Source: Callipepla californica brunnescens (Eukaryota; Chordata; Aves; Galliformes; Odontophoridae). From it: DNA of 64,000 bases. A model generated the notes under the pieces. The model was given only the letters and a program-made list of their open reading frames with translations. It was not told where the DNA came from and searched no databases. The stretch is from assembly GCA_023055505.1 (NCBI GenBank), contig JALIRH010000110.1:806001-870000 (forward strand), given 5' to 3'. Below, in pieces: positions 29,997-64,000 of the stretch (positions within the stretch are counted from its first letter, which is position 1; each line of letters begins with the position of its first letter). The translations under genes and the position numbers were made by a program.

Positions 29997-30287
29997 TTGG
30001 ATTCAATTAGCAGACCAATGAGTCACAGCTCTCATTTAGCATCTATTAAAAAAAAAAAAAAGCCTTGGAAGCCTCTAGCAGCACCAAGGAAATTCAAAGG
30101 GAGGGTGAAGTCAAGTATCTAAAAGAAATGAGAGATGCATTAATCAGCAGGTTCAGACTCCCAACGGCAGGAAAAAAAATTATTGCTCGTCTCAGGCATT
30201 CTTCAATCTGACCTGCAAAGCAAGCACATTTCAAGTAACACCCAGTACCTCACCGAGGCTGCAAGCCAAAGCCCCCATTTCCCATAC

Positions 30288-30325
30288 ACACACACACACA
30301 CACACAGACACACACACACACAGAC
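30288..30325. repeat. (CA)n microsatellite, left arm
   Basis: CA dinucleotides with single interruptions; mirrored at about 63,672-63,709. The flanks 29,997-30,287 and 30,326-30,597 hold no recognised gene. Confidence 0.92.
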
Positions 30326-30597
30326 GAGCGTCTTAACCACATCAAGGTCATCCAGTAACAAGACCATTAAATTAAGTTTTCCTCTAAAATGAGGTCTTCA
30401 TTATCAAGACTAATGAAAGGATGACAAAACCTTCTGAACAACTCCAGTCCTCAGTGAAGGCTTATTCGTGACTACAGCATTCTTTAGAAATGAAGTTAAT
30501 TAGAATTATTAAGAGCTATTTTAGCCTATGTTAAAGGTCATCTGACTATCAACGCCAGAACTGCATAGGACTGCAATGATACATAGTTCTCTGTACT

Positions 30598-30719
30598 TCT
30601 AAAATTTTTTACTTCTAAAAGTAAAATTAAACTAGAGCTTAAAATATGTTTTCCTCTTTCTGATTGTTCTTTCTTCCTGTTTATTATATTACTTCTTTAT
30701 TTTTGACCTTTATTTTTTT
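30598..30719 (-). repeat. AT module, inverted copy (left arm)
   Basis: Part of the conserved AT module in reverse orientation; its outer end at about 30,600 borders unique sequence. Confidence 0.8.
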
Positions 30720-30960
30720 TGTGGGGTAGACCTGTCCGCCCTGCCGCCGGGGTAGACCTGTCCGCCCTGTTGCCGCGGTAGACCTGTCCGCTCTGCTGCC
30801 TGGGTAGACCTGTCCGCCCGGCTTTCGGGGTAGACCTGTCCTCCCTGCCGCAGGGGTAGACCTGTTCTCCTGGCCGAGGGGGTAGACCTGTCCACCCGAG
30901 AGAGGGTTTAGACCTCTCTGCCCAGCCGCCGGGGTAGACCTGTCCTCCCGCTCGCTACCC
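30720..30960 (-). repeat. 26-bp GGTAGACCTGTCC array (left arm, outer)
   Basis: Nine or so units of GGGGTAGACCTGTCCGCC plus an 8-bp variable part. 26 bp is not a multiple of three, so three units give a 26-residue repeat in each open frame; these frames are artefacts. Confidence 0.92.
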
Positions 30961-31281
30961 CCTCCCCCACCTCCTCCCCCTCCCCCTCCCGAGGTTTTTT
31001 ATTCTCTATTATTCTTTTCTTTTTAGTTAGTGATCTTTCTCCGGCTAAAGTCGTCACCTTCGGCGGGATAGATTTGACACGGTGCCTGGACTCGGCGTCC
31101 CCCCCCTTTGCCCCCACCTCTTCCCCCCCCCCCCTCAACATTTCCAACCTTACCCCACGCTCATCCGCCCCACACCGCCCGACTCTTCTGTCGTGCTGCT
31201 ACCCAATTTTATTACTAGTTTTATCTTTAACCGCCTTTTTACTTTAAATGATTTTTGGGGGACGGGGGGGGGCATAGGGGG
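30961..31281 (-). repeat. C-rich module (left arm, outer)
   Basis: T-rich TTTTTTATTCTC, then AGTGATCTTTCTCCGGC, a GATAGATTTGACACGG box, C runs, and TGTCGTGCTGCTACCC; closes with G runs. Repeats at 31,976 and, inverted, at 37,860. Confidence 0.85.
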
Positions 31282-31436
31282 GGAAATGCGTGTTTTGTTT
31301 TTTTTTTAAAGGAGGATGGTTGTTTAATAAAAGTAAAATTAAACTTGAGCTTAAAATATGTTTTCCTCTTTCTGATTGTTCTTTCCTCCTGTTTATTATA
31401 TTACTTATTAATTTTTGACCGGTTTTTTTTTTTTCG
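31282..31436 (-). repeat. AT module, inverted copy 2 (left arm)
   Basis: Same module, complete, followed by a T run and the next 26-bp array. Confidence 0.85.
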
Positions 31437-31975
31437 TGGGGTAGACCTGTCCTCCCTGACGCAGGGGTAGACCTGTCCTCCCAGGCGCAGGGGTAGACCT
31501 GTCCGCCCGACCACCGGAGTAGACCTGTCCGCCCAGCCGCCGGGGTAGACGTGTCCGCCCAGCCGCCGGGGTAGACCTGTCCGCCCAGCTTTCGGGGTAG
31601 ACCTGTCCTCCGGGCCGCAGTGGTATACCTGTCCGCCCTGCCGCCGGGGTACACCTGTCCTCCCGGCCGCAGGGGTAGACCTGTCCGCCCGACCACCGGA
31701 GTAGACCTGTCCGCCCAGCCGCCGGGGTAGACGTGTCCGCCCAGCCGCCGGGGTAGACCTCTCCGCCCAGCTTTCGGGGTAGACCTGTCCTCCCGGCCGC
31801 AGTGGTAGACCTGTCCGCCCTGCCGCCGGGGTACACCTGTCCTCCCGGCCGCAGTGGTAGACCTGTCCGCCCTGCCGCCTGGGTAGACCTGTCCTCCCGG
31901 CCGCAGTGGTAGACCTGTTTGCCCGGCCGCCGGAGTAGACCTCTCCGCCCAGTCGCTGGGGGAGACCTGTCCTCC
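31437..31975 (-). repeat. 26-bp GGTAGACCTGTCC array (left arm, inner)
   Basis: About 21 units. Blocks of several units recur within it (for example those around 31,480-31,600 and 31,660-31,780), a sign of higher-order duplication. Confidence 0.93.
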
Positions 31976-32309
31976 CACTTGCTTCCCCACCCCGTCCACG
32001 GGGATTCGTTTATTCGAGGTTTTTTATTCTCTTTATTATTCTTTTCTTTTTAGTTAGTGATCTTTCTCCGGCTGAAGTCGCCTCCTTCGGCGGGGTAGAT
32101 GTGACGCGGTGCCTGGACTCGGCGTCCCCCCCTTTGCCCCCACCTCTTCCCCCCCCCCCCCCCTCAACTTTTCCAACCTTACCCCATGCTGATCCGCCCC
32201 ACACCGCCCGACACTTCTGTCGTGCTGCTACCCAATTTTATTACTAGTTTTATCTTTAACCGCCTTTTTACTTTAAATGATTTTTGGGGGAGGGGGTGCG
32301 GCAAGGGGG
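31976..32309 (-). repeat. C-rich module (left arm, inner)
   Basis: Close copy of the outer C-rich module, with GGGGTAGATGTGACGCGG. Confidence 0.85.
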
Positions 32310-32440
32310 GGAAATGCGTGTTTTCTTTCGTTTTGTTTTTAAATGAGGATGATTGTTTATTAAAAGTAAAATTAAACTTGAGCTTAAAATATGTTTTCCT
32401 CTTTCTGATTGTTCTTTCCTCCTGTTTATCGTATTACTTC
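32310..32440 (-). repeat. AT module, inverted copy 3 (left arm)
   Basis: Ends abruptly at CGTATTACTTC, after which KRAB-locus sequence begins. Confidence 0.85.
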
Positions 32441-33452
32441 TGGGCTGATTATGAACAGTGTCTCTGGGAATGCCCAGGGCTAATGCTTCCTTATTTATTT
32501 ATGCAAAGATTGATTACTCTGCTTTCAGAGATTTGTTTGCAATTCTATAGATTGACTCTCCTCTGCTTTTGCTTCTGTTCCCTGTTCCCGTCTATTTCTG
32601 TTCTTCTTTCCTTCATATGCAGCTTCCAAACCTGGCATTTTGCAGGTGACACCTCTCTCCTTTCATTTTTGTGTGGACCCTCGTGACTTTCCAGTTTGTC
32701 ACAGATGGATACAAATGCAATATTCAATACTATGAGACAGAGAAGCAGGGCTGTCTTTTTTGATGCACTACAGATATGCTGTAGTGATTTAACAGCGACT
32801 GAGTAAGATGGGAGATGGCTGGATGCACTTGGTTATTTACTGCATAGAGGGTAGGGTTACACACACACCTACAGGAGCCCCTCCCATTGAGTGGCACCCG
32901 TTCTGTCTCAGCTCCTCAAACCACAAAGTTAAGGAGCACTGGCACTGGTGGATCCTCTTCTAGCCCCAGACTTGGTCACGGTTTTCTGGAATTACATGTG
33001 CACAGTCTAGGACATAACCTTAGAGAAGGTCACAAAGCTCCAGAGTAACTGTGAGTCTCCTTCAGCAGATCTGCATCAGCAAGGTGACTGGACATTGAGG
33101 TGTGAGGGATCTCTGCTCAGGTGTGACCTCACCCACTTGGGCTGCTCTCTGTTTTGGGGTAAGATGACTGTCTCCTTGCCATGCTTTGTCTTTAGTCCCA
33201 TGGTCAGTCAGCCCTCAGCTGTTGAACTGTCAGCTGTCAGTTCTTTCAGCCTCCCAGTTTGAGACAGCTTTGTGATGGCTACTATCTTTTTAGCCAGAGT
33301 GTTTTGAATTCTGTTGCTCATTGCCTTCCTGTGCAAGGTGTGGTGTGCCATCCCTCAGGCAGTGCCCAGCAGATAAGCTGAGGAGGCCTGGGCTTAGACA
33401 GGGACTGCTGTGTTCCCTCACAGTTCCGCTGACATTTCCCTTGTCCTTGCAG
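32441..33452. other. Upstream region of the KRAB locus
   Basis: Unique sequence; may hold a 5' exon or promoter, but I cannot identify one. Confidence 0.4.
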
Positions 33453-35368
<1,916 letters not shown>

Positions 35369-35419
35369 GCGGACCTCCCCGTCTTGGTACCTTTGAACCA
35401 CCTGTATTACTCCTCGTGA

Positions 35420-35747
35420 GTCTATGAGTCACCGGAGGGAACCAAATGATGCTGAAGTATTCCAGAGTTGCTATAAGATCCTGTGCAACATCCAGTGATG
35501 GTCTGCCCGGGACTGATGAAAAGTAGGATGGTCCTGCACAACGTGACTGCATGCTTCCAGTAGATACCACCGAGCACTGGCCCAAGGAAGAACACGAGCC
35601 ATATGCTGATCATCACTCGTCCCAGATTACATCAACATGCATCGTGATGGGGCATTATGTAAGCGTCGTGATGTATTGGGTCTCTGTATTAAGGAGGGCT
35701 CACCCTATAGTTACTTATTCAGTGGTTCATGTCATGAAGGGGTGGAG
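35420..35747 (+). mobile_element. Internal remnant with polypurine tract
   Basis: Ends GAAGGGGTGGAG directly before the LTR, a polypurine tract like that of provirus 1. The segment is probably the 3' end of an otherwise lost provirus; its coding content is not recognisable. Confidence 0.5.
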
Positions 35748-36153
35748 TGTATGGGAACTGTTGGATTATGGCCTGAACCACTGATTGATCACCTGAGGTG
35801 AGCACTGAGTCAGCCGCAGGGGCACAGGTGAAGGTAACGTACCTGTGTGATTGGAAGGGGTGGAGCCTGGCTCCACCTCTCCCAGACCCCATTTAAGGGC
35901 TGACCACCCCCAGGGAAGGATCTCTTGTTGGAGATCCCGCCCTAGTGGAGTCTTTGTTGAGGCTAGACCATCATAAAAGGTGAGCCACTCTCTTTTTACT
36001 ATTTGTTTGTATACCGTCTACTTAAGCCTACCAAAAATATGCCATCTTTGGCATATTTCTTTTGGGTGCTGTTCTTGGGGGGTTATTTGCCCTACACAGA
36101 GATATTAAAGGAGTGCCATGCTTTGAAGAAGGATGCCTGTGTGTCTTGGCCCA
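35748..36153 (+). mobile_element. Second-family LTR copy 3
   Basis: A 3' LTR by position (polypurine tract before it). It runs straight into 82-bp satellite at 36,154. Confidence 0.75.
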
Positions 36154-36470
36154 TGCGGCGCCCTCTAGGCGCCTCAGCGGACCGTTCTGCTCTGTTGGAG
36201 CCTGGTAGACGAGGCCGGATGCGGCAAGACGCCCCGGCGGCGCACTTTAGGCGCCTCAGCGGACCGTTAGGCCTCGTCGAAGCAGGGTAGAAGTGGCCGA
36301 GCGCGGCATGCAGCCCGGGCACCGCACTCGTGGCAGCTCCGCCCTGCACGCTGAATCCCCGTTTACGGGAGGGGGAAGTAAGCTGGCAGGCAGGTCTACC
36401 CCGGAGGCAGGGAGGACATGTCTATCCTGCCGTCCGGCCAGACAGGTTTACCACCCTCTCTCTCTCTCTC
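36154..36470 (+). repeat. 82-bp satellite with 26-bp units (left arm)
   Basis: Three to four monomers, then CTGAATCCCCG and 26-bp-type units, closing with CTCTCTC. Confidence 0.85.
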
Positions 36471-36718
36471 AAAAAAAAAAAAAAAAAAAAGGAAAAAAAA
36501 CCTGTCAAAAATTAAGAAGTAATATAATAATCAGGAGGAAAGAAGAATCAGAAAGAGGAAAACATATTTTAAGCTCGTTTAATTGTACTTCTATTAAACA
36601 ATCATCCTCATTTATAAACAAAATGAAACAAAACGCACATTTCCCCCACACCTATCCCCCCCCTTCCCCCATCCCGCATAAAAAAAAAAAAAAATTAAAG
36701 TAAAAAGGCGGCTAAAAA
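36471..36718 (+). repeat. Poly-A plus AT module, forward copy (left arm)
   Basis: A run, AT module (about 36,505-36,640), C-rich run and a second A run. Confidence 0.83.
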
Positions 36719-37620
36719 TAAAGCAAGACGCCCCGGCGGCGCCCTCTGGGCAACTCCGCCCTGCGCAAGTCTGTTGGAGCCGGGTAGACGTGTCCGAGCG
36801 CGGCAAGCCGACACGGCAGCGCCCTCTAGGCGCCTCAGCATACCGTTCGTCCCGTCGGAGCCGGGTAGACGTGGCCGAGCGCGGCAAGTAGCCCCGGCGG
36901 CGCCCTCTGGGCAGTTCAGCATAGCGCGCCAAGTCTGTCGGAGCCCGGACGCGGCAAGCCGCCCCGGCGGCTATCTCTAGGCGTCTCATCGGACCGTTCT
37001 GCCCTCTCGGAGCAGGGTAGACAGGGCCGAGCGCGGCAAGACATCCCGGCGGCGCACTCTAGGAGTCTCATCGGACCGTTCGTCCCTATCGGAGCCGGGT
37101 AGACGTGGCTGGACGCGGCAAGCATCCCCGGCAGCGCCCTCTAGGCGTTACAGCGGACCGTTCAGCTGGGTTGGAGCCGGGTAGACGTGGCCGAGCGCGG
37201 CAAGCCGACACGGCAGCGCCCTCTAGGCGCCTCAGCAAACCGTTCGTCACGGTCGGAGCCGGGTAGATGAGGCCGTACGCGGCGAGTCGCCCCAGTTTCA
37301 CCCTCTGGGCAGCTCCGCCCTGCGAATTCCGTCGGAGCCTGGTAGACGTGGCCGAGCGCGGCAAGCCGCCCCGGCTGCGCCCTCTAGGCGCCTCAGCGGA
37401 CCGTTCGTCCCTGTCGGAGTCCGGTAGACGTGGCCGAGCGCGGCAAGTAGCCTGGGCACCGCAATCGTGGCAGCTCCGTCCTGCACCCTGAATCCCCGTG
37501 GACGAGAGGGGGGAAGTAAGCGGGCGGACAGGTCTACCCCGGCGGCGGGGAGGACAGGTCTACCCCGCCTGCCGGGCGGACAGGTCTATCCCGCCGTCCG
37601 GCCTGACAGGTTTACCCCCC
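36719..37620 (+). repeat. 82-bp satellite, main block (left arm)
   Basis: About ten monomers, ending in three 26-bp units and CTCTCTC. The GCGCCCTCTAGGC or GCGCCCTCTGGGC core recurs in most. Confidence 0.88.
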
Positions 37621-37629
37621 TCTCTCTCT

Positions 37630-37664
<35 letters not shown>

Positions 37665-37859
37665 GAAAAAAAACTGTGATATAATAAACAGGAGGAAAGA
37701 AGAATCAGAAAGAGGAAAACATATTTTAAGCTCAAGTTTAATTGTACTTTTATTAAACAATCATCCTCATTTATAAACAAAATGAAACAAAACGCACATT
37801 TCCCCCACACCTAGCCCCCCCTAGCCCCCCCACCGTACAAAAAAAATTAAAGTAAAAAG
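37621..37859 (+). repeat. Poly-A plus AT module, forward copy 2 (left arm)
   Basis: Longest A run of the arm (about 30), then the AT module. Length of the A run differs slightly between arms. Confidence 0.83.
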
Positions 37860-38150
37860 GCGGCTAAAAATAAAACTAGAAATTAAATTGGGTAGCAGCA
37901 CGACAGAAGTGTCGGGCGGAGCGGGGCGGATCAGCGTGGGGTAAGGTTGGAAAAGTTGAGGGGGGGGGGGGGAAGTGGTGGGGGCAGAGGGGGGTTGCCG
38001 AGTCCAGCCGCCGCGTCACATCTACACATCTGAAGGAGGCGACTTCGGCCGGAGAAAGATCACTAACTGAAAAGAAAAGAATAATCAAGAGAATATAAAA
38101 CCTCGGATAAACGAATCCCCATGGATGGGAGGGGGAATCGAGCTGGCAGA
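37860..38150 (+). repeat. C-rich module, opposite orientation (left arm)
   Basis: Reverse complement of the modules at 30,961 and 31,976 (GGGTAGCAGCACGACAG, GGAGAAAGATCACTAAC). Confidence 0.85.
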
Positions 38151-38345
38151 CAAGTCTACCCCCCCCCCCCCAAAAAAAAAAAAAAAAAGGGAAAGAAAAA
38201 CCGGTCAAAAAATAAGAAGTAATATAATAAAGAGGAGGAAAGAAGAATCAGAAAGATGAAAACATTGTAATCTCAAGATTAATTTTACTTTTATTAAACG
38301 ATCATCCTCATTTAAAAACAAAACCAAACAAAACGCGCATTTATC
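38151..38345 (+). repeat. Poly-C/A plus AT module, forward copy 3 (left arm)
   Basis: AT module with a few private changes (AAGATGAAAACATTG). Confidence 0.83.
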
Positions 38346-38865
38346 CACCCCGCCCTGCGGCCCTCTAGGTGCCTCAGCGGACCGTTGGCCCTGTCAGAGC
38401 CGTGTAGACGTGGCCGAGCGCGGCAAGCCGCCACGGCGGCTATCTCTAGGCGCCTCATCGGACCGTTCTGCCCCATCGGAGCCGGGTAGACGTGGCCGGA
38501 CGCGGCAAGCCTCCCCGGCGACGCACTCTGGGCACTTCCGCCCAGAGCACCATGTCTGTCGGAGCCGGGTAGATGAGGCCGAGCGCGGCAAGACGCCCCG
38601 GCGGTGCCCTGTAGGCGCCTCAGCGGACTGTTCGTTCCGGTCAGAGCCGGGTAGACGTGGCCGAGGGCGGCAAGCCGCCCGGGCGGTGCCCTCTAGGCCC
38701 GTCAGCGGACCGTTCGGCTCTGTCAAAGCCTGGTAGACGTGGCTGGACGCAGCAAGCCGCCCCAGCAGCGCTCTCCCGGCGCCTCAGAGGACCGTTCTTC
38801 CCCTTCGGAGCCAGGTAGCCGTGGCCGAGCGCGGCATGCCGCCACGTCAGCGCCCTCTGGAATGA
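38346..38865 (+). repeat. 82-bp satellite, inner block (left arm)
   Basis: Six monomers; ends at GCGCCCTCTGGAATG, where YTHDC2-related sequence begins. Confidence 0.87.
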
Positions 38866-39368
38866 TAAAGGAGACGTGATTAGATAACGGCAAGTATCTT
38901 TAAACTTGTAACGTTCACGTTATTGAAGATGATCAATTAAAAAAAGGCATGCTTTTGGCTTTCGGTTGATAAACATTTTGCTAATATAATGGCATAGATT
39001 TGCATGTTATGCTGTGTGTTGCCTCCATGGAAAAAATACAGAACAAGATGACACGATGTGTTGACATAGAGGTACAGATTAAATTGCAGCCATTGAACAG
39101 CGCAGGATTGTGTACATCTTGCACAGAAACAGTTCCTGTTAGTAGCACCTGGATAGTACTTCTCACTGTGCTCTTGGAGCACACATTTGCAGTCATGCAC
39201 TTCGTGTGCCCTTACAGAATTTCTGTTGGACTGGTACCAACTTCTGGATTGAGTAAAATAGAATGCTATAGGTAAACTTGTGATTTGAAGTCACTATTTT
39301 TGTAACGGAAAGCAGTAGATCATTAAAGTGATTATAAAACTGTTCTGAAAATATTTTTCACCTTCTAG
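38866..39368 (+). other. Probable intron of the YTHDC2 relic
   Basis: AT-rich, no exon recognised; ends in a CTTCTAG acceptor. Confidence 0.5.
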
Positions 39369-39517
39369 AAGAAGAGCAGCCAAGTGCTCCTACTGAGTGG
39401 TGTTCTGATGGAGAAAACAGCAGCAACCCACAGTCAGGGAGAAAAAAATCTGTTGCAAGTGTATCTGAATGATATAATGTGCTGGGGAGCGGCGGTGAGA
39501 CGGTATTTGATGATCTG
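39369..39517 (+). pseudogene. YTHDC2: YTHDC2 exon relic 1, left arm
   Basis: 149 bp between a CTTCTAG acceptor and a GTAAGC donor. The translation resembles YTHDC2 between its helicase core and ankyrin repeats: EEEQPSAPTEWCSDGEN, then KKSVASVSE, stop, YNVLGSGGETVFDDL. The stop is TGA at 39470-39472. YTHDC2 is a 3'-5' RNA helicase with a YTH m6A-reading domain, needed for meiotic entry. This and the next two blocks are in order and spaced by introns, so the copy arose by DNA duplication or gametolog decay, not by retrotransposition. The family match is from memory of the vertebrate protein. Confidence 0.78.
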
Positions 39518-41028
39518 GTAAGCTTTTCCTTTGTTGGAAGAAATGTTCCAGATTTACGTAGTTAACCTTTAAAAAACTGTTTTCTAAAGATATTGGGAAA
39601 GGATGGTTTGAGACCATCTAAGAGTTCTGGGTGTGCACAAGTCTGTGGTGTCTGGTGAGGTTCATGTGAGGGTGTGGAGAGAGTAGTTGAAACCTGGCTT
39701 GCTGAGAAAGGCCACGGGAACCAGGTGCAGGACCAGCTGCAGTAGCTTGAGCAAAAACATGAAGGGGCACCATCCAATTACAGACAAGGGCACGGTAACC
39801 TTGCCGCAAAGTGAAGGTGGTAGGAGTAAATATTTAAGAAAGTAGTGACCAATGAAACTTCTGCTTAGCCACAAGAATGTATAACAGAAACTTCTGTGCA
39901 CTTATATCTTTAACCTATTAGGAGCTCAGGTTTTGCAATATGTATGAACTTCATTACCACTACTATAAATGTACACAGCCTTCTGATTGAAGTTGAGACC
40001 ATTTGATCATACTGATTGTGTCTTTGTCTCCCGTCGACTTCATTGGGGCCCGACAATTTTCTGCCGCGCTCCGACATGAGGGTACTGAGGAAACTGGGTG
40101 AGGAAATTGCTGTGCATCATCTTTGGCATGCCATGGCAGTCTTGTGAAGTTCTCAGTGATTCGGCCTTTTCTCTCGTGTGGGTAGTGATAGGACTAGAGG
40201 GAATGGCTTCAAGCTGCGCCAAGGGAGATTCAGGCTGGATGTTAGGAAACACTGCGACTCTGAAAGAGTGGTCGGGCACTGCCCTGTCCAGGGAGGGGCT
40301 GGAGGCACCGATACTGGAGGTGTTCAGGGTACGTTTGGACATTGTGTAGAGGGACATGGTTTGGTGAGAACTATTGGTGATGGGTGAGTGGTCAGACGTG
40401 ATGATCTTACAGGTCTTTTCCAACCTTGGTGATTCCATGACTGGACAAGAAGAAACATAACTCCCATTATTAAAACATTAAAGAAGAAAGATCTGTACAA
40501 CCACAGGCCACTCCTTTTCTGAGCCTGATAAGGTCATAGAGCATATCCTTCTGTGAACTGTTATAGCACATGGAAAACAGATTACTAGTGTCAGTCAGCA
40601 TGTATTCTCTGAGGGCCTGGGGGTGAAACATGGTTGTGTGAAGTGGATGGATTGGATATTCGGAATAGGGATTGTCTGGATTATTGAATTCAGATAGTTG
40701 CAGTCAGTGACTTGATCTTCAGGTGGGTCCAGTGATGAGTATTGACCCTCAGGGGCTTGGATTGGAGCTGGTATTATTTGTAACCATGTGTGTTGTTAAT
40801 GTGGAATGTGAGATGAAGTGCATTTCAGAAAGTTTGTGGGTGGCACAAAGCTGAGCGATGGAGTCGACATGCTCGAGTGAAGATACCATAAATGCATTAA
40901 CTGATAACTGAATTCTGTATTTCTAGTTGTTTAAAAACTAGATTTCTTAGTTCCTCATCTGTGAGAATGAAGACAAAAGAACATCCTGAAGAGATTCATC
41001 AATTTAATCCTGTTTTCTTTCTCCTCAG
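39518..41028 (+). other. YTHDC2 relic intron, with CR1 insertion
   Basis: Non-coding apart from the CR1 at 40,172-40,440; ends in a TCTCCTCAG acceptor. Confidence 0.6.
40172..40440 (+). mobile_element. CR1 LINE 3' end, left arm
   Basis: CR1 tail of a different subtype from those at 23 and 25 kb (GATAGGACTAGAGGGAATGG, ACAGGTCTTTTCCAACC), with one terminal unit (GATTCCATGA). Coding part broken. Confidence 0.9.
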
Positions 41029-41152
41029 GTTGAAAAAGGTTCAGGTTGTCTTGAACCATGGCTAATAAAAGATGGATTTTTGTCTGTCTAACATAACGAT
41101 ATCAATTCCTTTGCTCAGGTGTTCCATTTCATTTTAACCGAAAACGTCAGCG
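41029..41152 (+). pseudogene. YTHDC2: YTHDC2 exon relic 2, left arm
   Basis: 124 bp with intact TCTCCTCAG acceptor and GTAAGT donor. Reads EKGSGCLEPWLIKDGF...stop...INSFAQVFHFILTENVS, matching the YTHDC2 segment that leads into the ankyrin repeats. TAA at 41089-41091 breaks the frame. Confidence 0.85.
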
Positions 41153-41493
41153 GTAAGTTGCTTTTGTTCATCTTGTTAAATAAGGAAAAAATAAATGACA
41201 AAGTGATTTTTCTATGACTTTATATCTTTTTTTAAGTGTTAATTTTTGTTTCTTATCTTTCCCTTTTTGAACAATGAGTATGTGGAATAGTTAACGAATG
41301 GAGTACTTGTTCCTTTCTCATTTGGAAGTATTGACAAGGAGGTTGATGCTGTTTGACAGACATTACGTTCATGTGAACTGACTGGTAGATGAAGAAACAA
41401 AATTTTGTTGGTGAAGATTTTGAAAGTCATATTTGTGTTTTGTTTAGATGAAAAAAATGCGTAATGTTTTGGCCCATGTGTTTTGCTTCTCCG

Positions 41494-41695
41494 TTGATTA
41501 TAGGCATAGTGAAACCAGTGCAGCTGCACTAATGACTGCGTCAGGGAGAGGCTTTACAAGTGAAGTAGAGCAACTGATCAGTGTGGGAGCAAGCATCTAC
41601 TGCAGATCATCCGATGGCTGCTAAAAGGAAAAGCAGATTTTGAGAAACTTACTTCCAAGTATAAAAATGAGAACTTGGGAGATGTAGCAGAATTT
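41494..41695 (+). pseudogene. YTHDC2: YTHDC2 exon relic 3, left arm
   Basis: Begins with codons for VDYRHSETSA and continues ALMTASGRGFTSEVEQLISV, the first ankyrin repeat of YTHDC2. A small deletion then shifts the frame; WAK and ETY, separated by a stop, can still be picked out in another frame. The acceptor dinucleotide reads CG instead of AG (41492-41493). Three independent lesions across the three exons make it a pseudogene. Confidence 0.85.
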
Positions 41696-43842: not shown

Positions 43843-43848
43843 TTTTTT

Positions 43849-44668: not shown

Positions 44669-44699
44669 CCCGTGCCCCCCAGCCAAGGGGGGGGAAAGG

Positions 44700-52297: not shown

Positions 52298-52498
52298 AAT
52301 TCTGCTACATCTCCCAAGTTCTCATTTTTATACTTGGAAGTAAGTTTCTCAAAATCTGCTTTTCCTTTTAGCAGCCATCGGATGATCTGCAGTAGATGCT
52401 TGCTCCCACACTGATCAGTTGCTCTACTTCACTTGTAAAGCCTCTCCCTGACGCAGTCATTAGTGCAGCTGCACTGGTTTCACTATGCCTATAATCAA
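52297..52498 (-). pseudogene. YTHDC2: YTHDC2 exon relic 3, right arm
   Basis: Same ankyrin-region sequence, frameshift and CG acceptor as the left copy, so these lesions predate the duplication or were homogenised. Confidence 0.84.
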
Positions 52499-52839
52499 CG
52501 GAGAAGCAAAACACATGGGCCAAAACATTACGCATTTTTTTCATCTAAACAAAACACAAATATGACTTTCAAAATCTTCACCAACAAAATTTTGTTTCTT
52601 CATCTACCAGTCAGTTCACATGAACGTAATGTCTGTCAAACAGCATCAACCTCCTTGTCAATACTTCCAAATGAGAAAGGAACAAGTACTCCATTCGTTA
52701 ACTATTCCACATACTCATTGTTCAAAAAGGGAAAGATAAGAAACAAAAATTAACACTTAAAAAAAGATATAAAGTCATAGAAAAATCACTTTGTCATTTA
52801 TTTTTTCCTTATTTAACAAGATGAACAAAAGCAACTTAC

Positions 52840-52963
52840 CGCTGACGTTTTCGGTTAAAATGAAATGGAACACCTGAGCAAAGGAATTGATATCGTTATG
52901 TTAGACAGACAAAAATCCATCTTTTATTAGCCATGGTTCAAGACAACCTGAACCTTTTTCAAC
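52840..52963 (-). pseudogene. YTHDC2: YTHDC2 exon relic 2, right arm
   Basis: Mirror of 41,029-41,152 with the same TAA and intact splice sites. Confidence 0.84.
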
Positions 52964-53551
52964 CTGAGGAGAAAGAAAACAGGATTAAATTGATGAATCT
53001 CTTCAGGATGTTCTTTTGTCTTCATTCTCACAGATGAGGAACTAAGAAATCTAGTTTTTAAACAACTAGAAATACAGAATTCAGTTATCAGTTAATGCAT
53101 TTATGGTATCTTCACTCGAGCATGTCGACTCCATCGCTCAGCTTTGTGCCACCCACAAACTTTCTGAAATGCACTTCATCTCACATTCCACATTAACAAC
53201 ACACATGGTTACAAATAATACCAGCTCCAATCCAAGCCCCTGAGGGTCAATACTCATCACTGGACCCACCTGAAGATCAAGTCACTGACTGCAACTATCT
53301 GAATTCAATAATCCAGACAATCCCTATTCCGAATATCCAATCCATCCACTTCACACAACCATGTTTCACCCCCAGGCCCTCAGAGAATACATGCTGACTG
53401 ACACTAGTAATCTGTTTTCCATGTGCTATAACAGTTCACAGAAGGATATGCTCTATGACCTTATCAGGCTCAGAAAAGGAGTGGCCTGTGGTTGTACAGA
53501 TCTTTCTTCTTTAATGTTTTAATAATGGGAGTTATGTTTCTTCTTGTCCAG

Positions 53552-53820
53552 TCATGGAATCACCAAGGTTGGAAAAGACCTGTAAGATCATCACGTCTGA
53601 CCACTCACCCATCACCAATAGTTCTCACCAAACCATGTCCCTCTACACAATGTCCAAACGTACCCTGAACACCTCCAGGGTCGGTGCCTCCAGCCCCTCC
53701 CTGGACAGGGCAGTGCCCGACCACTCTTTCAGAGTCGCAGTGTTTCCTAACATCCAGCCTGAATCTCCCTTGGCGCAGCTTGAAGCCATTCCCTCTAGTC
53801 CTATCACTACCCACACGAGA
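53552..53820 (-). mobile_element. CR1 LINE 3' end, right arm
   Basis: Mirror of 40,172-40,440; two bases differ, giving GACCCTGG opposite GATACTGG. Confidence 0.9.
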
Positions 53821-54474
53821 GAAAAGGCCGAATCACTGAGAACTTCACAAGACTGCCATGGCATGCCAAAGATGATGCACAGCAATTTCCTCACCCAGTT
53901 TCCTCAGTACCCTCATGTCGGAGCGCGGCAGAAAATTGTCGGGCCCCAATGAAGTCGACGGGAGACAAAGACACAATCAGTATGATCAAATGGTCTCAAC
54001 TTCAATCAGAAGGCTGTGTACATTTATAGTAGTGGTAATGAAGTTCATACATATTGCAAAACCTGAGCTCCTAATAGGTTAAAGATATAAGTGCACAGAA
54101 GTTTCTGTTATACATTCTTGTGGCTAAGCAGAAGTTTCATTGGTCACTACTTTCTTAAATATTTACTCCTACCACCTTCACTTTGCGGCAAGGTTACCGT
54201 GCCCTTGTCTGTAATTGGATGGTGCCCCTTCATGTTTTTGCTCAAGCTACTGCAGCTGGTCCTGCACCTGGTTCCCGTGGCCTTTCTCAGCAAGCCAGGT
54301 TTCAACTACTCTCTCCACACCCTCACATGAACCTCACCAGACACCACAGACTTGTGCACACCCAGAACTCTTAGATGGTCTCAAACCATCCTTTCCCAAT
54401 ATCTTTAGAAAACAGTTTTTTAAAGGTTAACTACGTAAATCTGGAACATTTCTTCCAACAAAGGAAAAGCTTAC

Positions 54475-54623
54475 CAGATCATCAAATACCGTCTCACCGC
54501 CGCTCCCCAGCACATTATATCATTCAGATACACTTGCAACAGATTTTTTTCTCCCTGACTGTGGGTTGCTGCTGTTTTCTCCATCAGAACACCACTCAGT
54601 AGGAGCACTTGGCTGCTCTTCTT
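54475..54623 (-). pseudogene. YTHDC2: YTHDC2 exon relic 1, right arm
   Basis: Mirror of 39,369-39,517 with the same TGA. Confidence 0.78.
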
Positions 54624-55126
54624 CTAGAAGGTGAAAAATATTTTCAGAACAGTTTTATAATCACTTTAATGATCTACTGCTTTCCGTTACAAAAATAGTG
54701 ACTTCAAATCACAAGTTTACCTATAGCATTCTATTTTACTCAATCCAGAAGTTGGTACCAGTCCAACAGAAATTCTGTAAGGGCACACGAAGTGCATGAC
54801 TGCAAATGTGTGCTCCAAGAGCACAGTGAGAAGTACTATCCAGGTGCTACTAACAGGAACTGTTTCTGTGCAAGATGTACACAATCCTGCGCTGTTCAAT
54901 GGCTGCAATTTAATCTGTACCTCTATGTCAACACATCGTGTCATCTTGTTCTGTATTTTTTCCATGGAGGCAACACACAGCATAACATGCAAATCTATGC
55001 CATTATATTAGCAAAATGTTTATCAACCGAAAGCCAAAAGCATGCCTTTTTTTAATTGATCATCTTCAATAACGTGAACGTTACAAGTTTAAAGATACTT
55101 GCCGTTATCTAATCACGTCTCCTTTA

Positions 55127-55646
55127 TCATTCCAGAGGGCGCTGACGTGGCGGCATGCCGCGCTCGGCCACGGCTACCCGGCTCCGAAGGGGAAGAACGG
55201 TCCTCTGAGGCGCCGGGAGAGCGCTGCTGGGGCGGCTTGCTGCGTCCAGCCACGTCTACCAGGCTTCGACAGAGCCGAACGGTCCGCTGACGGGCCTAGA
55301 GGGCACCGCCCGGGCGGCTTGCCGCCCTCGGCCACGTCTACCCGGCTCTGACCGGAACGAACAGTCCGCTGAGGCGCCTACAGGGCACCGCCGGGGCGTC
55401 TTGCCGCGCTCGGCCTCATCTACCCAGCTCCGACAGACATGGTGCTCTGGGCGGAAGTGCCCAGAGGGCGTCGCCGGGGAGGCTTGCCGCGTCCGGCCAC
55501 GTCTACCCGGCTCCGATGGGGCAGAACGGTCCGATGAGGCGCCTAGAGATAGCCGCCGTGGCGGCTTGCCGCGCTCGGCCACGTCTACACGGCTCTGACA
55601 GGGCCAACGGTCCGCTGAGGCACCTAGAGGGCCGCAGGGCGGGGTG
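55127..55646 (-). repeat. 82-bp satellite, inner block (right arm)
   Basis: Mirror of 38,346-38,865. In this orientation the CTAGAGGGCGC-type core reads on plus. Confidence 0.87.
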
Positions 55647-56327
55647 GATAAATGCGCGTTTTGTTTGGTTTTGTTTTTAAATGAGGATGATCGTTTAATA
55701 AAAGTAAAATTAATCTTGAGATTACAATGTTTTCATCTTTCTGATTCTTCTTTCCTCCTCTTTATTATATTACTTCTTATTTTTTGACCGGTTTTTCTTT
55801 CCCTTTTTTTTTTTTTTTTGGGGGGGGGGGGGGTAGACTTGTCTGCCAGCTCGATTCCCCCTCCCATCCATGGGGATTCGTTTATCCGAGGTTTTATATT
55901 CTCTTGATTATTCTTTTCTTTTCAGTTAGTGATCTTTCTCCGGCCGAAGTCGCCTCCTTCAGATGTGTAGATGTGACGCGGCGGCTGGACTCGGCAACCC
56001 CCCTCTGCCCCCACCACTTCCCCCCCCCCCCCTCAACTTTTCCAACCTTACCCCACGCTGATCCGCCCCGCTCCGCCCGACACTTCTGTCGTGCTGCTAC
56101 CCAATTTAATTTCTAGTTTTATTTTTAGCCGCCTTTTTACTTTAATTTTTTTTGTACGGTGGGGGGGCTAGGGGGGGCTAGGTGTGGGGGAAATGTGCGT
56201 TTTGTTTCATTTTGTTTATAAATGAGGATGATTGTTTAATAAAAGTACAATTAAACTTGAGCTTAAAATATGTTTTCCTCTTTCTGATTCTTCTTTCCTC
56301 CTGTTTATTATATCACAGTTTTTTTTC

Positions 56328-56363
<36 letters not shown>

Positions 56364-56382
56364 AGAGAGAGAGGGGGGTAAA
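55647..56382 (-). repeat. AT and C-rich modules (right arm, inner)
   Basis: Mirror of 37,621-38,345: AT module, homopolymer, C-rich module, AT module, long T run. Confidence 0.83.
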
Positions 56383-57274
56383 CCTGTCAGGCCGGACGGC
56401 GGGATAGACCTGTCCGCCCGGCAGGCGGGGTAGACCTGTCCTCCCCGCCGCCGGGGTAGACCTGTCCGCCCGCTTACTTCCCCCCTCTCGTCCACAGGGA
56501 TTCAGGGTGCAGGACGGAGCTGCCACGATTGCGGTGCCCAGGCTACTTGCCGCGCTCGGCCACGTCTACCGGACTCCGACAGGGACGAACGGTCCGCTGA
56601 GGCGCCTAGAGGGCGCAGCCGGGGCGGCTTGCCGCGCTCGGCCACGTCTACCAGGCTCCGACGGAATTCGCAGGGCGGAGCTGCCCAGAGGGTGAAACTG
56701 GGGCGACTCGCCGCGTACGGCCTCATCTACCCGGCTCCGACCGTGACGAACGGTTTGCTGAGGCGCCTAGAGGGCGCTGCCGTGTCGGCTTGCCGCGCTC
56801 GGCCACGTCTACCCGGCTCCAACCCAGCTGAACGGTCCGCTGTGACGCCTAGAGGGCGCTGCCGGGGATGCTTGCCGCGTCCAGCCACGTCTACCCGGCT
56901 CCGATAGGGACGAACGGTCCGATGAGACTCCTAGAGTGCGCCGCCGGGATGTCTTGCCGCGCTCGGCCCTGTCTACCCTGCTCCGAGAGGGCAGAACGGT
57001 CCGATGAGACGCCTAGAGATAGCCGCCGGGGCGGCTTGCCGCGTCCGGGCTCCGACAGACTTGGCGCGCTATGCTGAACTGCCCAGAGGGCGCCGCCGGG
57101 GCTACTTGCCGCGCTCGGCCACGTCTACCCGGCTCCGACGGGACGAACGGTATGCTGAGGCGCCTAGAGGGCGCTGCCGTGTCGGCTTGCCGCGCTCGGA
57201 CACGTCTACCCGGCTCCAACAGACTTGCGCAGGGCGGAGTTGCCCAGAGGGCGCCGCCGGGGCGTCTTGCTTTA
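56383..57274 (-). repeat. 82-bp satellite, main block (right arm)
   Basis: Mirror of 36,719-37,620, with 26-bp units at its outer-left end. Confidence 0.88.
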
Positions 57275-57526
57275 TTTTTAGCCGCCTTTTTACTTTAATT
57301 TTTTTTTTTTTTATGCGGGATGGGGGAAGGGGGGGGGATAGGTGTGGGGGAAATGTGCGTTTTGTTTCATTTTGTTTATAAATGAGGATGATTGTTTAAT
57401 AGAAGTACAATTAAACGAGCTTAAAATATGTTTTCCTCTTTCTGATTCTTCTTTCCTCCTGATTATTATATTACTTCTTAATTTTTGACAGGTTTTTTTT
57501 CCTTTTTTTTTTTTTTTTTTTTTTGA
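57275..57526 (-). repeat. AT module and homopolymers (right arm)
   Basis: Mirror of 36,471-36,718. Confidence 0.83.
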
Positions 57527-57843
57527 GAGAGAGAGAGAGAGGGTGGTAAACCTGTCTGGCCGGACGGCAGGATAGACATGTCCTCCCTGCCTCCGGGGTA
57601 GACCTGCCTGCCAGCTTACTTCCCCCTCCCGTAAACGGGGATTCAGCGTGCAGGGCGGAGCTGCCACGAGTGCGGTGCCCGGGCTGCATGCCGTGCTCGG
57701 CCACTTCTACCCTGCTTCGACGAGGCCTAACGGTCCGCTGAGGCGCCTAAAGTGCGCCGCCGGGGCGTCTTGCCGCATCCGGCCTCGTCTACCAGGCTCC
57801 AACAGAGCAGAACGGTCCGCTGAGGCGCCTAGAGGGCGCCGCA
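57527..57843 (-). repeat. 82-bp satellite with 26-bp units (right arm)
   Basis: Mirror of 36,154-36,470. Confidence 0.85.
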
Positions 57844-58249
57844 TGGGCCAAGACACACAGGCATCCTTCTTCAAAGCATGGCACTCCTTTAATATCTCTG
57901 TGTAGGGCAAATAACCCCCCAAGAACAGCACCCAAAAGAAATATGCCAAAGATGGCATATTTTTGGTAGGCTTAAGTAGACGGTATACAAACAAATAGTA
58001 AAAAGAGAGTGGCTCACCTTTTATGATGGTCTAGCCTCAACAAAGACTCCACTAGGGCGGGATCTCCAACAAGAGATCCTTCCCTGGGGGTGGTCAGCCC
58101 TTAAATGGGGTCTGGGAGAGGTGGAGCCAGGCTCCACCCCTTCCAATCACACAGGTACGTTACCTTCACCTGTGCCCCTGCGGCTGACTCAGTGCTCACC
58201 TCAGGTGATCAATCAGTGGTTCAGGCCATAATCCAACAGTTCCCATACA
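57844..58249 (-). mobile_element. Second-family LTR copy 3, right arm
   Basis: Mirror of 35,748-36,153; polypurine tract at 58,250-58,261 on minus, and the internal remnant to about 58,577. Confidence 0.75.
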
Positions 58250-58628
58250 CTCCACCCCTTCATGACATGAACCACTGAATAAGTAACTATAGGGTGAGCC
58301 CTCCTTAATACAGAGACCCAATACATCACGACGCTTACATAATGCCCCATCACGATGCATGTTGATGTAATCTGGGACGAGTGATGATCAGCATATGGCT
58401 CGTGTTCTTCCTTGGGCCAGTGCTCGGTGGTATCTACTGGAAGCATGCAGTCACGTTGTGCAGGACCATCCTACTTTTCATCAGTCCCGGGCAGACCATC
58501 ACTGGATGTTGCACAGGATCTTATAGCAACTCTGGAATACTTCAGCATCATTTGGTTCCCTCCGGTGACTCATAGACTCACGAGGAGTAATACAGGTGGT
58601 TCAAAGGTACCAAGACGGGGAGGTCCGC

Positions 58629-60544
<1,916 letters not shown>

Positions 60545-61559
60545 CTGCAAGGACAAGGGAAATGTCAGCGGAACTGTGAGGGAACACAGCAGTCCCTGTC
60601 TAAGCCCAGGCCTCCTCAGCTTATCTGCTGGGCACTGCCTGAGGGATGGCACACCACACCTTGCACAGGAAGGCAATGAGCAACAGAATTCAAAACACTC
60701 TGGCTAAAAAGATAGTAGTCATCACAAAGCTGTCTCAAACTGGGAGGCTGAAAGAACTGACAGCTGACAGTTCAGCAGCTGAGGGCTGACTGACCATGGG
60801 ACTAAAGACAAAGCATGGCAAGGAGACAGTCATCTTACCCCAAAACAGAGAGCAGCCCAAGTGGGTGAGGTCACACCTGAGCAGAGATCCCTCACACCTC
60901 AATGTCCAGTCACCTTGCTGATGCAGATCTGCTGAAGGAGACTCACAGTTACTCTGGAGCTTTGTGACCTTCTCTAAGGTTATGTCCTAGACTGTGCACA
61001 TGTAATTCCAGAAAACCGTGACCAAGTCTGGGGCTAGAAGAGGATCCACCAGTGCCAGTGCTCCTTAACTTTGTGGTTTGAGGAGCTGAGACAGAACGGG
61101 TGCCACTCAATGGGAGGGGCTCCTGTAGGTGTGTGTGTAACCCTACCCTCTATGCAGTAAATAACCAAGTGCATCCAGCCATCTCCCATCTTACTCAGTC
61201 GCTGTTAAATCACTACAGCATATCTGTAGTGCATCAAAAAAGACAGCCCTGCTTCTCTGTCTCATAGTATTGAATATTGCATTTGTATCCATCTGTGACA
61301 AACTGGAAAGTCACGAGGGTCCACACAAAAATGAAAGGAGAGAGGTGTCACCTGCAAAATGCCAGGTTTGGAAGCTGCATATGAAGGAAAGAAGAACAGA
61401 AATAGACGGGAACAGGGAACAGAAGCGAAAGCAGAGGAGAGTCAATCTATAGAATTGCAAACAAATCTCTGAAAGCAGAGTAATCAATCTTTGCATAAAT
61501 AAATAAGGAAGCATTAGCCCTGGGCATTCCCAGAGACACTGTTCATAATCAGCCCAGAG
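60545..61559 (-). other. Upstream region of the KRAB locus, right arm
   Basis: Mirror of 32,441-33,452; no exon recognised. Confidence 0.4.
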
Positions 61560-62021
61560 GTAATACGATGAACAGGAGGAAAGAACAATCAGAAAGAGGA
61601 AAACATATTTTAAGCTCAAGTTTAATTTTACTTTTAATAAACAATCATCCTCATTTAAAAACAAAACGAAACAAAACATGCATTTCCCCCCCTTGCCGCC
61701 CCCCCTCCCCCAAAAATCATTTAAAGTAAAAAGGCGGTTAAAGATAAAACTAGTAATAAAATTGGGTAGCAGCACGACAGAAGTGTCGGGCGGTGTGGGG
61801 CGGATCAGCGTGGGGTAAGGTTGGAAAAGTTGAGGGGGGGGGGGAAGAGGTGGGGCTAAAGGGGGGGACGCCGAGTCCAGGCACCGTGTCACATCTACCC
61901 CGCCGAAGGAGGCGACTTCAGCCGGAGAAAGATCACTAACTAAAAAGAAAAGAATAATAAAGAGAATAAAAATCCTCAAATAAACGAATTCCCGTGGACG
62001 GGGTGGGGAAGCAAGTGGGAG
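61560..62021 (+). repeat. AT and C-rich modules (right arm, outer 1)
   Basis: Mirror of 31,976-32,440. Confidence 0.84.
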
Positions 62022-62560
62022 GACAGGTCTACCCCAGCGGCTGGGCGGAGATGTCTTCCCAGGTGGAAGGGCGGACAGGTCTACCACTGCGGCCGGGAGG
62101 ACAGGTCTACCCAGGCGGCAGGGCGGACAGGTCTACCACTGCGGCCGGGAGGACAGGTGTACCCCGGCGGCAGGGCGGACAGGTCTACCACTGCGGCCCG
62201 GAGGACAGGTCTACCCCGAAAGCTGGGCGGACAGGTCTACCCCGGCGGCTGGGCGGACACATCTACCCCGGCGGCTGGGCGGACAGGTCTACTCCGGTGG
62301 TCGGGCGGACAGGTCTACCCCTGCGGCCGGGAGGACAGGTGTACCCCGGCGGCAGGGCGGACAGGTCTATCACTGCGGCCCGGAGGACAGGTCTACCCCG
62401 AAAGCTGGGCGGACAGGTCTACCCCGGCGGCTGGGCGGACACGTCTACCCCGGCGGCTGGGCGGACAGGTCTACTCCGGTGGTCGGGCGGACAGGTCTAC
62501 CCCTGCGCCTGGGAGGACAGGTCTACCCCTGCGTCAGGGAGGACAGGTCTACCCCACGAA
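62022..62560 (+). repeat. 26-bp array (right arm, inner)
   Basis: Mirror of 31,437-31,975. Units at 62,040-62,080 differ from the left arm (GATGTCTTCCCAGGTGG), so the array has changed after duplication. Confidence 0.92.
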
Positions 62561-63041
62561 AAAAAAAAAAAACCGGTCAAAAATTAATAAGTAATATAAT
62601 AAACAGGAGGAAAGAACAATCAGAAAGAGGAAAACATATTTTAAGCTCAAGTTTAATTTTACTTTTATTAAACAACCATCCTCCTTTAAAAAAAAAACAA
62701 AACACGCATTTCCCCCCCTATGCCCCCCCCCGTCCCCCAAAAATCATTTAAAGTAAAAAGGCGGTTAAAGATAAAACTAGTAATAAAATTGGGTAGCAGC
62801 ACGACAGAAATGTCGGGCGGTGTGGGGCGGATGAGCGTGGGGTAAGGTTGGAAATGTTGAGGGGGGGGGGGGGAAGAGGTGGGGGCAAAGGGGAGGGACG
62901 CCGAGTCCAGGCACCGTGTCAAATCTATCCCGCCGAAGGTGACGACTTTAGCCGGAGAAAGATCACTAACTAAAAAGAAAAGAATAATAGAGAATAAAAA
63001 ACCTCGGGAGGGGGAGGGGGAGGAGGTGGGGGAGGGGGGTA
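62561..63041 (+). repeat. AT and C-rich modules (right arm, outer 2)
   Basis: Mirror of 30,961-31,436. Confidence 0.84.
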
Positions 63042-63277
63042 GCGAGCGGGAGGACAGGTCTACCCCGGCGGCTGGGCAGAGAGGTCTAAACCCTCTCTCG
63101 GGTGGACAGGTCTACCCCCTCGGCCAGGAGAACAGGTCTACCCCTGCGGCAGGGAGGACAGGTCTACCCCGAAAGCCGGGCGGACAGGTCTACCCAGGCA
63201 GCAGAGCGGACAGGTCTACCGCGGCAACAGGGCGGACAGGTCTACCCCGGCGGCAGGGCGGACAGGTCTACCCCACA
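63042..63277 (+). repeat. 26-bp array (right arm, outer)
   Basis: Mirror of 30,720-30,960. Confidence 0.92.
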
Positions 63278-63399
63278 AAAAAAATAAAGGTCAAAAATAA
63301 AGAAGTAATATAATAAACAGGAAGAAAGAACAATCAGAAAGAGGAAAACATATTTTAAGCTCTAGTTTAATTTTACTTTTAGAAGTAAAAAATTTTAGA
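63278..63399 (+). repeat. AT module (right arm, outermost)
   Basis: Mirror of 30,598-30,719; unique sequence follows to the window end. Confidence 0.8.
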
Positions 63400-63671
63400 A
63401 GTACAGAGAACTATGTATCATTGCAGTCCTATGCAGTTCTGGCGTTGATAGTCAGATGACCTTTAACATAGGCTAAAATAGCTCTTAATAATTCTAATTA
63501 ACTTCATTTCTAAAGAATGCTGTAGTCACGAATAAGCCTTCACTGAGGACTGGAGTTGTTCAGAAGGTTTTGTCATCCTTTCATTAGTCTTGATAATGAA
63601 GACCTCATTTTAGAGGAAAACTTAATTTAATGGTCTTGTTACTGGATGACCTTGATGTGGTTAAGACGCTC

Positions 63672-63709
63672 GTCTGTGTGTGTGTGTGTCTGTGTGTGTG
63701 TGTGTGTGT
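63672..63709. repeat. (GT)n microsatellite, right arm
   Basis: Mirror of the CA repeat at 30,288; surrounding sequence to 64,000 shows no gene. Confidence 0.92.
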
Positions 63710-64000
63710 GTATGGGAAATGGGGGCTTTGGCTTGCAGCCTCGGTGAGGTACTGGGTGTTACTTGAAATGTGCTTGCTTTGCAGGTCAGATTGAAGAATG
63801 CCTGAGACGAGCAATATTTTTTTTTCCTGCCGTTGGGAGTCTGAACCTGCTGATTAATGCATCTCTCATTTCTTTTAGATACTTGACTTCACCCTCCCTT
63901 TGAATTTCCTTGGTGCTGCTAGAGGCTTCCAAGGCTTTTTTTTTTTTTTAATAGATGCTAAATGAGAGCTGTGACTCATTGGTCTGCTAATTGAATCCAA

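What the first reader, a model, noticed from the sequence alone, without database searches (positions are those of the whole stretch)
29997..64000. Near-identical inverted repeat of at least 14.5 kb per arm with a 4.9-kb spacer
Paired coordinates sum to 93,992-93,997 over the whole length. Arm lengths within the window are 14,539 and 14,543 bp. Differences are few, including inside fast-evolving arrays and A runs, so the duplication is very recent or the arms are kept alike by gene conversion. Such palindromes are known on bird and mammal sex chromosomes. The outer ends are not in the window.
Basis: partly seen in the sequence, partly recalled or inferred. Interest (0 to 1): 0.85.

Follow-up and report, generated by a model that had tools for sequence, protein, structure and literature searches.

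The report
Bird W-chromosome-type palindrome split at retrovirus
A bird chromosome carries a stretch of DNA and its near-perfect mirror image on either side of part of an old endogenous retrovirus; the mirrored DNA holds a dead copy of a gene that normally sits on the Z chromosome, so this is most likely a palindrome of the female-specific W chromosome, a known kind of structure, here with signs that its two arms have been copying from each other.

Summary
The inverted repeat is real in the sequence as given: arms 29,997-44,535 and 49,458-64,000, 99.57% identical (47 mismatches, 9 indels), spacer 4,922 bp; the outer ends are cut by the window. The spacer is mostly an endogenous retrovirus (LTRs 43,276-43,842 and 47,965-48,514). 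That provirus runs unbroken out of arm A into the spacer but stops inside its gag-like region in arm B, so 49,457/49,458 is the rearrangement junction. The arms hold a KRAB exon and four collinear, decayed YTHDC2 exons with introns. YTHDC2 is Z-linked in birds, and the remnant groups with chicken and guineafowl, so a galliform W chromosome is the likeliest place; this is inference. Single-copy arm DNA differs by 0.08%, yet a 1,003-bp repeat block differs by 2.8%. That mosaic fits gene conversion that skipped one block better than a single recent copying. Formation by fold-back (spacer of the right size) is inferred. Duck W already has 38 TE-rich palindromes without robustly expressed genes in print, so this is a new member of a known kind. 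Assembly error is not excluded: no reads could be examined, and the own-genome search did not complete.

The parts
29997..44535 (+). Arm A of the inverted repeat (outer end cut by the window)
   Evidence: 99.567% identical to 49458-64000 on the other strand
49458..64000 (-). Arm B of the inverted repeat (outer end cut by the window)
44536..49457 (.). Spacer, 4922 bp; its only inverted matches in the window are its LTR (to the LTR of arm B, 93.8%) and 40 bp of a short gag-like repeat
   Evidence: 48515-49457 has no other match
43276..48514 (+). Endogenous retrovirus 2 (ERV2), crossing the arm A/spacer boundary; RNase H reading frame recognised; no target-site duplication seen
   Evidence: LTR pair and 91.9% match to ERV1 internal part; PF00075 in 46613-47218; flanks
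43276..43842 (+). 5' LTR of ERV2 in arm A; exact copy in arm B at 50151-50717
   Evidence: 567 of 567 identical between arms
47965..48514 (+). 3' LTR of ERV2, in the spacer
   Evidence: 19 substitutions in 550 ungapped columns to the 5' LTR (93.8% with gaps counted)
49458..50717 (-). Truncated ERV2 copy in arm B (5' LTR plus start of the gag-like region; gag-like by position, no Pfam match)
49457..49458 (.). Rearrangement junction: spacer flank joined to the interior of the inverted gag-like region
   Evidence: ERV2 is continuous through 44535 in arm A but ends here in arm B
48735..48890 (+). Degenerate telomere-like (TTAGGG-like) repeats in the spacer flank
   Evidence: (37-bp unit at 48735-48809), sequence read
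33727..33852 (+). KRAB-A exon, open, flanked by AG and GT; exact copy in arm B (60147-60272 covers 33725-33850)
   Evidence: (ZNF93 KRAB, E 7.3e-7)
39368..39520 (+). YTHDC2 remnant, stretch i, with an in-frame stop
41029..41151 (+). YTHDC2 remnant, stretch ii, with an in-frame stop and shorter than in birds
41490..41618 (+). YTHDC2 remnant, stretch iii (ankyrin repeat)
42653..42697 (+). YTHDC2 remnant, stretch iv (short, weakest match)
31438..32440 (+). Divergent block of arm A: 28 mismatches in 1003 bp against arm B (16 in the 26-bp array, 12 in 463 bp outside it)

Best explanation
A palindrome of the W chromosome of a galliform bird. Shown: near-identical inverted arms; a spacer mostly of ERV2; one arm cut inside the ERV2 gag-like region; decayed YTHDC2 exons with introns in both arms; strongly patchy arm-to-arm divergence. 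Inferred: the locus is W-linked; a break near 49,457 folded back or switched template onto the gag-like region near 44,535 and copied the neighbouring DNA in reverse, leaving the loop as the spacer; afterwards gene conversion between the arms kept most of them alike (0.08% apart), while the 26-bp array and its neighbour (2.8% apart) escaped recent conversion. It probably has no gene-preserving function: the only sex-linked gene recognised in it is dead, with the same lesions in both copies. What it does is act as a template pair for conversion and inversion on a chromosome that otherwise does not recombine.
For: Arms and boundaries. Provirus in the spacer and asymmetric boundary. Bird: a retroviral ORF of ERV1 has 59 relatives, 27 with a species name, 26 of these birds; the best named ones are Lagopus, Excalfactoria, Tympanuchus and Numida. 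YTHDC2: four collinear tblastn matches per arm, E 5e-14 to 0.002, none with the reversed control, and only matches of E 0.2 or more in two of three shuffles; repeated with 35 of the 120 listed proteins, of which 35 matched stretches ii and iii, 34 stretch i and 23 stretch iv, guineafowl scoring best. A tree with 26 orthologues joins the remnant to Gallus and Numida at 100% ultrafast bootstrap. Z linkage of YTHDC2: passages of PMC7692361; chicken YTHDC2 lies on a contig of 86,044,486 bp, which I recall as the length of chicken Z. Conversion: 8 mismatches in 10,117 bp against 39 in 4,422 bp, Fisher P 1.2e-13; 32 of 47 mismatches fall in one 1.6-kb stretch, against a maximum of 17 in 2000 random placings. 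Of 12 mismatches in 31,978-32,440, outside the array, 8 are private to arm B and 3 to arm A, so no other copy found in the window is the donor. Order of events is consistent: ERV2 LTRs 3.45% apart, skipped block 2.6% outside the array, rest 0.08%. The spacer of 4,922 bp lies within 766-70,466 bp (median 3,428) for human fold-back duplications (PMC3907307 passages). Duck W palindromes are TE-rich and without robustly expressed genes (PMC7787181 passages and section 9).
Against: No reads, depth, sex comparison or flanking sequence were available; the genome search on the own genome did not complete six times. W linkage rests on one dead gene plus retrovirus content, and a Z-linked duplication covering YTHDC2 is on record in birds-of-paradise. 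The AU test does not exclude grouping with ducks (P 0.09) and cannot tell whether the remnant split before or after the chicken-guineafowl split. Chicken YTHDC2 itself did not match stretch i at the cut-off used. The divergent block coincides with a repeat element, so conversion from a copy outside the window, or a high local mutation rate, would also explain it; the element's copies in the arms are mirror pairs, so the independent copies compared are few, three at some sites. ERV2 has no target-site duplication, so its LTR pair may come from two insertions and its age is uncertain. No microhomology could be judged at the junction, because the ancestral continuation beyond 49,457 is not in hand.
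Confidence: 0.5

Rival explanations
1. A single recent inverted duplication without gene conversion. The 0.08% divergence is its age and the divergent block is merely a fast-mutating or ectopically converted repeat.
For: The four non-repeat pieces are alike, 0.05-0.14% apart; the divergent block coincides with a repeat family that has other copies in the window.
Against: 12 mismatches lie in 463 bp that is not tandem array, and no other copy found in the window carries the 8 states private to arm B; 31 of 47 mismatches lie between 31,102 and 32,438, while the other large array block, 36,155-38,858, has only 8 in 2,704 bp.
Confidence: 0.2
2. Assembly error: two haplotypes or two loci falsely joined head to head at a retrovirus copy.
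For: The junction lies inside a retroviral repeat, a common misjoin site (general knowledge); 0.08% is also a plausible level of heterozygosity; no reads could be examined.
Against: The boundary is asymmetric with a 4.9-kb spacer, unlike a missed-adapter fold-over, which leaves no spacer (general knowledge). The junction joins non-retroviral flank to the interior of the gag-like region, and identity runs straight through the LTR into 13 kb of flank, so a join by shared retroviral sequence alone would rest on an overlap of about 1.26 kb.
Confidence: 0.13
3. A real inverted duplication on the Z chromosome or an autosome that happens to carry an old YTHDC2 pseudogene copy.
For: A Z-linked duplication covering YTHDC2 is reported in birds-of-paradise (PMC7692361 passages); the arms also hold an open KRAB exon.
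Against: The remnant is long decayed, with a branch about ten times that of chicken or guineafowl, it lies in retrovirus-rich sequence with two proviruses in 64 kb, and its exons are still separated by intervening sequence, as in a non-recombining gametolog.
Confidence: 0.17

Closest known systems
Palindromes of the Pekin duck W chromosome (38; PMC7787181)
   Same: TE-rich inverted repeats on an avian W, 15.2-345.5 kb, without robustly expressed genes, gene copies perhaps dead before amplification
   Different: This one appears galliform, has a retrovirus at the junction and a mosaic of arm divergence; W linkage here is inferred, not shown
W-linked palindrome with part of a CHD1W intron in sparrows (Davis et al. 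2010; as cited in passages)
   Same: Bird W palindrome with signs of conversion
   Different: Songbirds, other gene; the paper itself was not held
Primate Y-chromosome palindromes (PMC3723533, start of abstract; PMC3403216, passages)
   Same: Inverted arms over 99.9% alike, unduplicated spacer, conversion; here 99.92% outside repeat blocks
   Different: Primate arms average 73-344 kb and (recalled) carry testis genes; here no working sex-linked gene was seen
Fold-back inverted duplications of the human genome (PMC3907307, passages)
   Same: A normal-copy spacer of a few kb between inverted copies, with the new junction at one end of it
   Different: Those are patient variants with known ancestral sequence; junction homology could not be tested here

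Membership tests
Sex-limited (W or Y) chromosome palindrome | Long inverted arms of very high identity | tested here: met
   99.57% over 14,549 columns, 99.92% outside repeat blocks
Sex-limited (W or Y) chromosome palindrome | Unduplicated spacer between the arms | tested here: met
   4,922 bp; apart from its LTR and 40 bp, no inverted match in the window
Sex-limited (W or Y) chromosome palindrome | Location on a chromosome found in one sex only | not testable with these tools
   Only indirect: decayed copy of a Z-linked gene; own-genome search unanswered
Sex-limited (W or Y) chromosome palindrome | Gene conversion between the arms | tested here: inconclusive
   Mosaic divergence favours it; no relative with the same palindrome to prove it
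Gene-preserving (ampliconic) palindrome | Working sex-linked genes in the arms | tested here: inconclusive
Fold-back inverted duplication | Spacer of roughly 0.8-70 kb with the new junction on one side | tested here: met
   4,922 bp and ERV2 continuous only on the arm A side
Fold-back inverted duplication | Short inverted homology at the junction | not testable with these tools
   Needs the unrearranged sequence beyond 49,457

The most novel reading that the evidence does not exclude
A galliform W palindrome, outside songbirds and ducks, nucleated inside a retrovirus, whose arms have been homogenised by gene conversion although the only sex-linked gene recognised in them was already dead. If so, palindromes on a W chromosome arise and are kept alike as a mechanical consequence of retrovirus-rich, non-recombining DNA, with no selection to preserve genes, and the skipped repeat block records where conversion tracts stop.
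Probability: 0.4. Interest if true: 0.55.

Novelty: new member of a known kind. Interest (0 to 1): 0.42.

Why it matters
Y and W palindromes are usually explained as a way to rescue genes where there is no partner to recombine with. A palindrome with arms 99.9% alike around a long-dead gene would separate 'conversion happens because inverted copies are there' from 'conversion is kept because it saves genes'. The junction inside a provirus also gives a concrete case of retrovirus build-up turning into large-scale chromosome structure.

Tried and rejected
Rfam (gathering threshold) and tRNA scans of the window gave nothing. Pfam found retroviral and zinc-finger domains, but nothing in 5 of the 10 ORFs sent: two arm ORFs, 34,747-35,211 and 40,040-40,477, and three gag-like ones. 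Ectopic conversion as the source of the divergent block was tested against the other copies in the window and rejected for those copies only. Placing the remnant outside neognath birds or with Neoaves was excluded by the AU test (0.004 and 0.036; the SH test gives 0.038 and 0.095, so it does not exclude the second); ducks were not excluded (AU 0.09). The direct match 12,136-15,488 to 44,668-48,024 is not part of the palindrome; it is two members of one retrovirus family. Print searches for bird, chicken or galliform W palindromes. Apart from the duck and sparrow cases no report was seen in the listings; they cover open-licence papers only and were capped in part (20 of 27 shown, 12 of 857; one search found no paper). 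In the main text of the complete chicken genome paper (PMC9974502) the word-starts palindrom, inverted and YTHDC2 do not occur; its supplement was not read.
Full report
What is there. A self-comparison of the window finds a single dominant inverted match: 29,997-44,535 against 64,000-49,458, 14,549 columns, 99.567% identity. Realignment gives 47 mismatches and 16 gap columns in 9 events. Because the window ends at 64,000, the outer ends are unknown.

What the spacer is. LTR-like copies lie at 43,276-43,842 and 47,965-48,514, with internal sequence between them that matches a second provirus at 9,618-15,953 at 91.9%. In that second one (ERV1) RT, RNase H and integrase domains were recognised, and in the first (ERV2) RNase H in the one pol frame sent. 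So ERV2 begins in arm A and continues without a break into the spacer. In arm B only its 5' LTR and the start of the gag-like region (so called from its position; no Pfam match) are present, in inverted orientation, and at 49,457/49,458 this meets 943 bp of flank (48,515-49,457) that has no other match in the window. The arm A boundary is therefore ordinary sequence and the arm B boundary is the rearrangement junction. Short tandem repeats of the gag-like region straddle 44,535. ERV1 has a GGTGA target-site duplication; ERV2 has GAAAT on one side and CCCAA on the other, so it may be a recombinant.

What the arms carry. A KRAB-A exon lies at 33,727-33,852 (best solved relative the KRAB of ZNF93, E 7.3e-7), open and flanked by AG and GT. 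Four stretches at 39,368-39,520, 41,029-41,151, 41,490-41,618 and 42,653-42,697 match YTHDC2 in order and on one strand. I first saw this with a protein recalled from memory (the reversed query found nothing, of three shuffles one found nothing and two gave only matches with E of 0.2 or more). A database search then showed the recalled text to be 100% identical to a stored protein and listed 120 of 3,547 relatives. Of these I tried 35 (33 birds, a turtle and the unnamed one): all 35 matched stretches ii and iii, 34 matched stretch i (chicken did not at the cut-off), 23 matched stretch iv; guineafowl scored best and ducks next. Two of the four stretches contain an in-frame stop, and all four are letter-identical in the two arms. 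The stretches are separated by 0.3-1.5 kb, so this is a DNA-based copy with introns.

Which bird and which chromosome. The gag-like ORF of ERV1 has 59 relatives; the four best are unnamed, 27 have a species name, 26 of these birds and one a record named Klebsiella pneumoniae; the best named are galliforms. In a tree of 26 orthologues and 148 columns the remnant joins Gallus and Numida with 100% ultrafast bootstrap, outside that pair at 90%. Constrained trees: sister to Gallus plus Numida, with Numida, or with Gallus are equally good; ducks are not excluded (AU 0.09); a position outside neognath birds (0.004) or with Neoaves (0.036) is, though for the latter the SH test does not agree (0.095). 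YTHDC2 lies on the Z chromosome of birds-of-paradise (PMC7692361, passages); the chicken protein comes from a contig of 86,044,486 bp, a length I recall as that of chicken Z. A long-dead, intron-bearing galliform copy in retrovirus-rich DNA is what a W gametolog should look like, but an old Z or autosomal copy would look similar. I put W linkage at about 0.75 if the palindrome is real.

Recent copy or conversion. Outside repeat blocks there are 8 mismatches in 10,117 bp (0.08%); in repeat blocks 39 in 4,422 bp (Fisher P 1.2e-13). The block 31,438-32,440 has 28 in 1,003 bp, of which 12 lie in 463 bp outside the 26-bp array; the other large array block, 36,155-38,858, has 8 in 2,704 bp. The densest 1.6 kb holds 32 of 47 mismatches; in 2000 random placings the mean was 10.3 and the maximum 17. 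At the 12 sites outside the array, arm B alone has the odd state at 8, arm A alone at 3, and one is split, judged against the other copies of the element in the window that cover each site, which are few at some sites. The block therefore looks like sequence that has been accumulating its own mutations, as expected if conversion skipped it, though a donor outside the window or a hot spot of mutation remains possible. The divergences fit an order: ERV2 LTRs 19/550 apart, then palindrome formation and the skipped block at 12/463, then the last homogenisation at 8/10,117. ERV1 LTRs are 6/521 apart.

How it formed. Human inverted duplications that arise by fold-back have an unduplicated spacer of 766-70,466 bp, median 3,428, between the inverted copies (PMC3907307, passages). 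The spacer and the asymmetry here fit. The test of short inverted homology needs the ancestral sequence beyond 49,457.

What is known. Duck W carries 38 palindromes of 15.2-345.5 kb built of nested repeats, without robustly expressed genes, and the authors suggest the gene copies may have been dead before being amplified (PMC7787181, passages and section 9). A W palindrome with conversion is cited for sparrows (the paper was not held), and tandem, not inverted, HINTW copies for galliforms. So the kind is known. A galliform palindrome did not appear in the listings, which cover open-licence papers only and were capped in part.

Verdict. Probability that the palindrome is real in the genome: about 0.87. 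I also changed the gene-preserving row of the membership test from not met to inconclusive, since the arms were not fully scanned for genes.

Noticed in passing
2243-3988, 30616-32441, 36155-38858 and mirror positions in arm B; weaker at 6204-6669: A composite repeat family: 82-bp GC-rich tandem units, 26-bp tandem units (GGGGTAGACCTGTCCGCCC...), an A-run and a shared tail, in several copies mostly 80-93% alike; reminiscent of a composite VNTR retroposon, family not identified.
   Followed up: partly
4689-5228 (-): Open reading frame of about six C2H2 zinc fingers, outside the visible arm and on the strand opposite to the KRAB exon of arm A.
   Followed up: no
4313-4414: A 107-column match (78.5%) to the reverse-transcriptase part of both proviruses, next to the zinc-finger frame: a retroviral fragment.
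   Followed up: no
9618-15953: A younger provirus of the same family as ERV2: LTRs 6 differences in 521 columns, target-site duplication GGTGA, RT, RNase H and integrase frames.
   Followed up: partly
48735-48890: Degenerate telomere-like repeats (variants of TTAGGG) in the spacer flank next to the palindrome junction.
   Followed up: no
5609-5849: Degenerate GGAGT satellite-like stretch with 40- to 60-bp higher-order periods.
   Followed up: no
about 34060-34600 and 35720-36020 in arm A, also about 8970-9330: Similar segments (minus-strand ORFs reading MGSGRGGARLHPFQSHRY... and relatives) seen by eye; a probable interspersed repeat.
   Followed up: no
25485-26477 (+): Part of a reverse-transcriptase frame (PF00078, E 8.8e-6, below its curated cut-off) that I take, from recall, for a CR1-like LINE, with an AT-rich tandem repeat at its start.
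   Followed up: no
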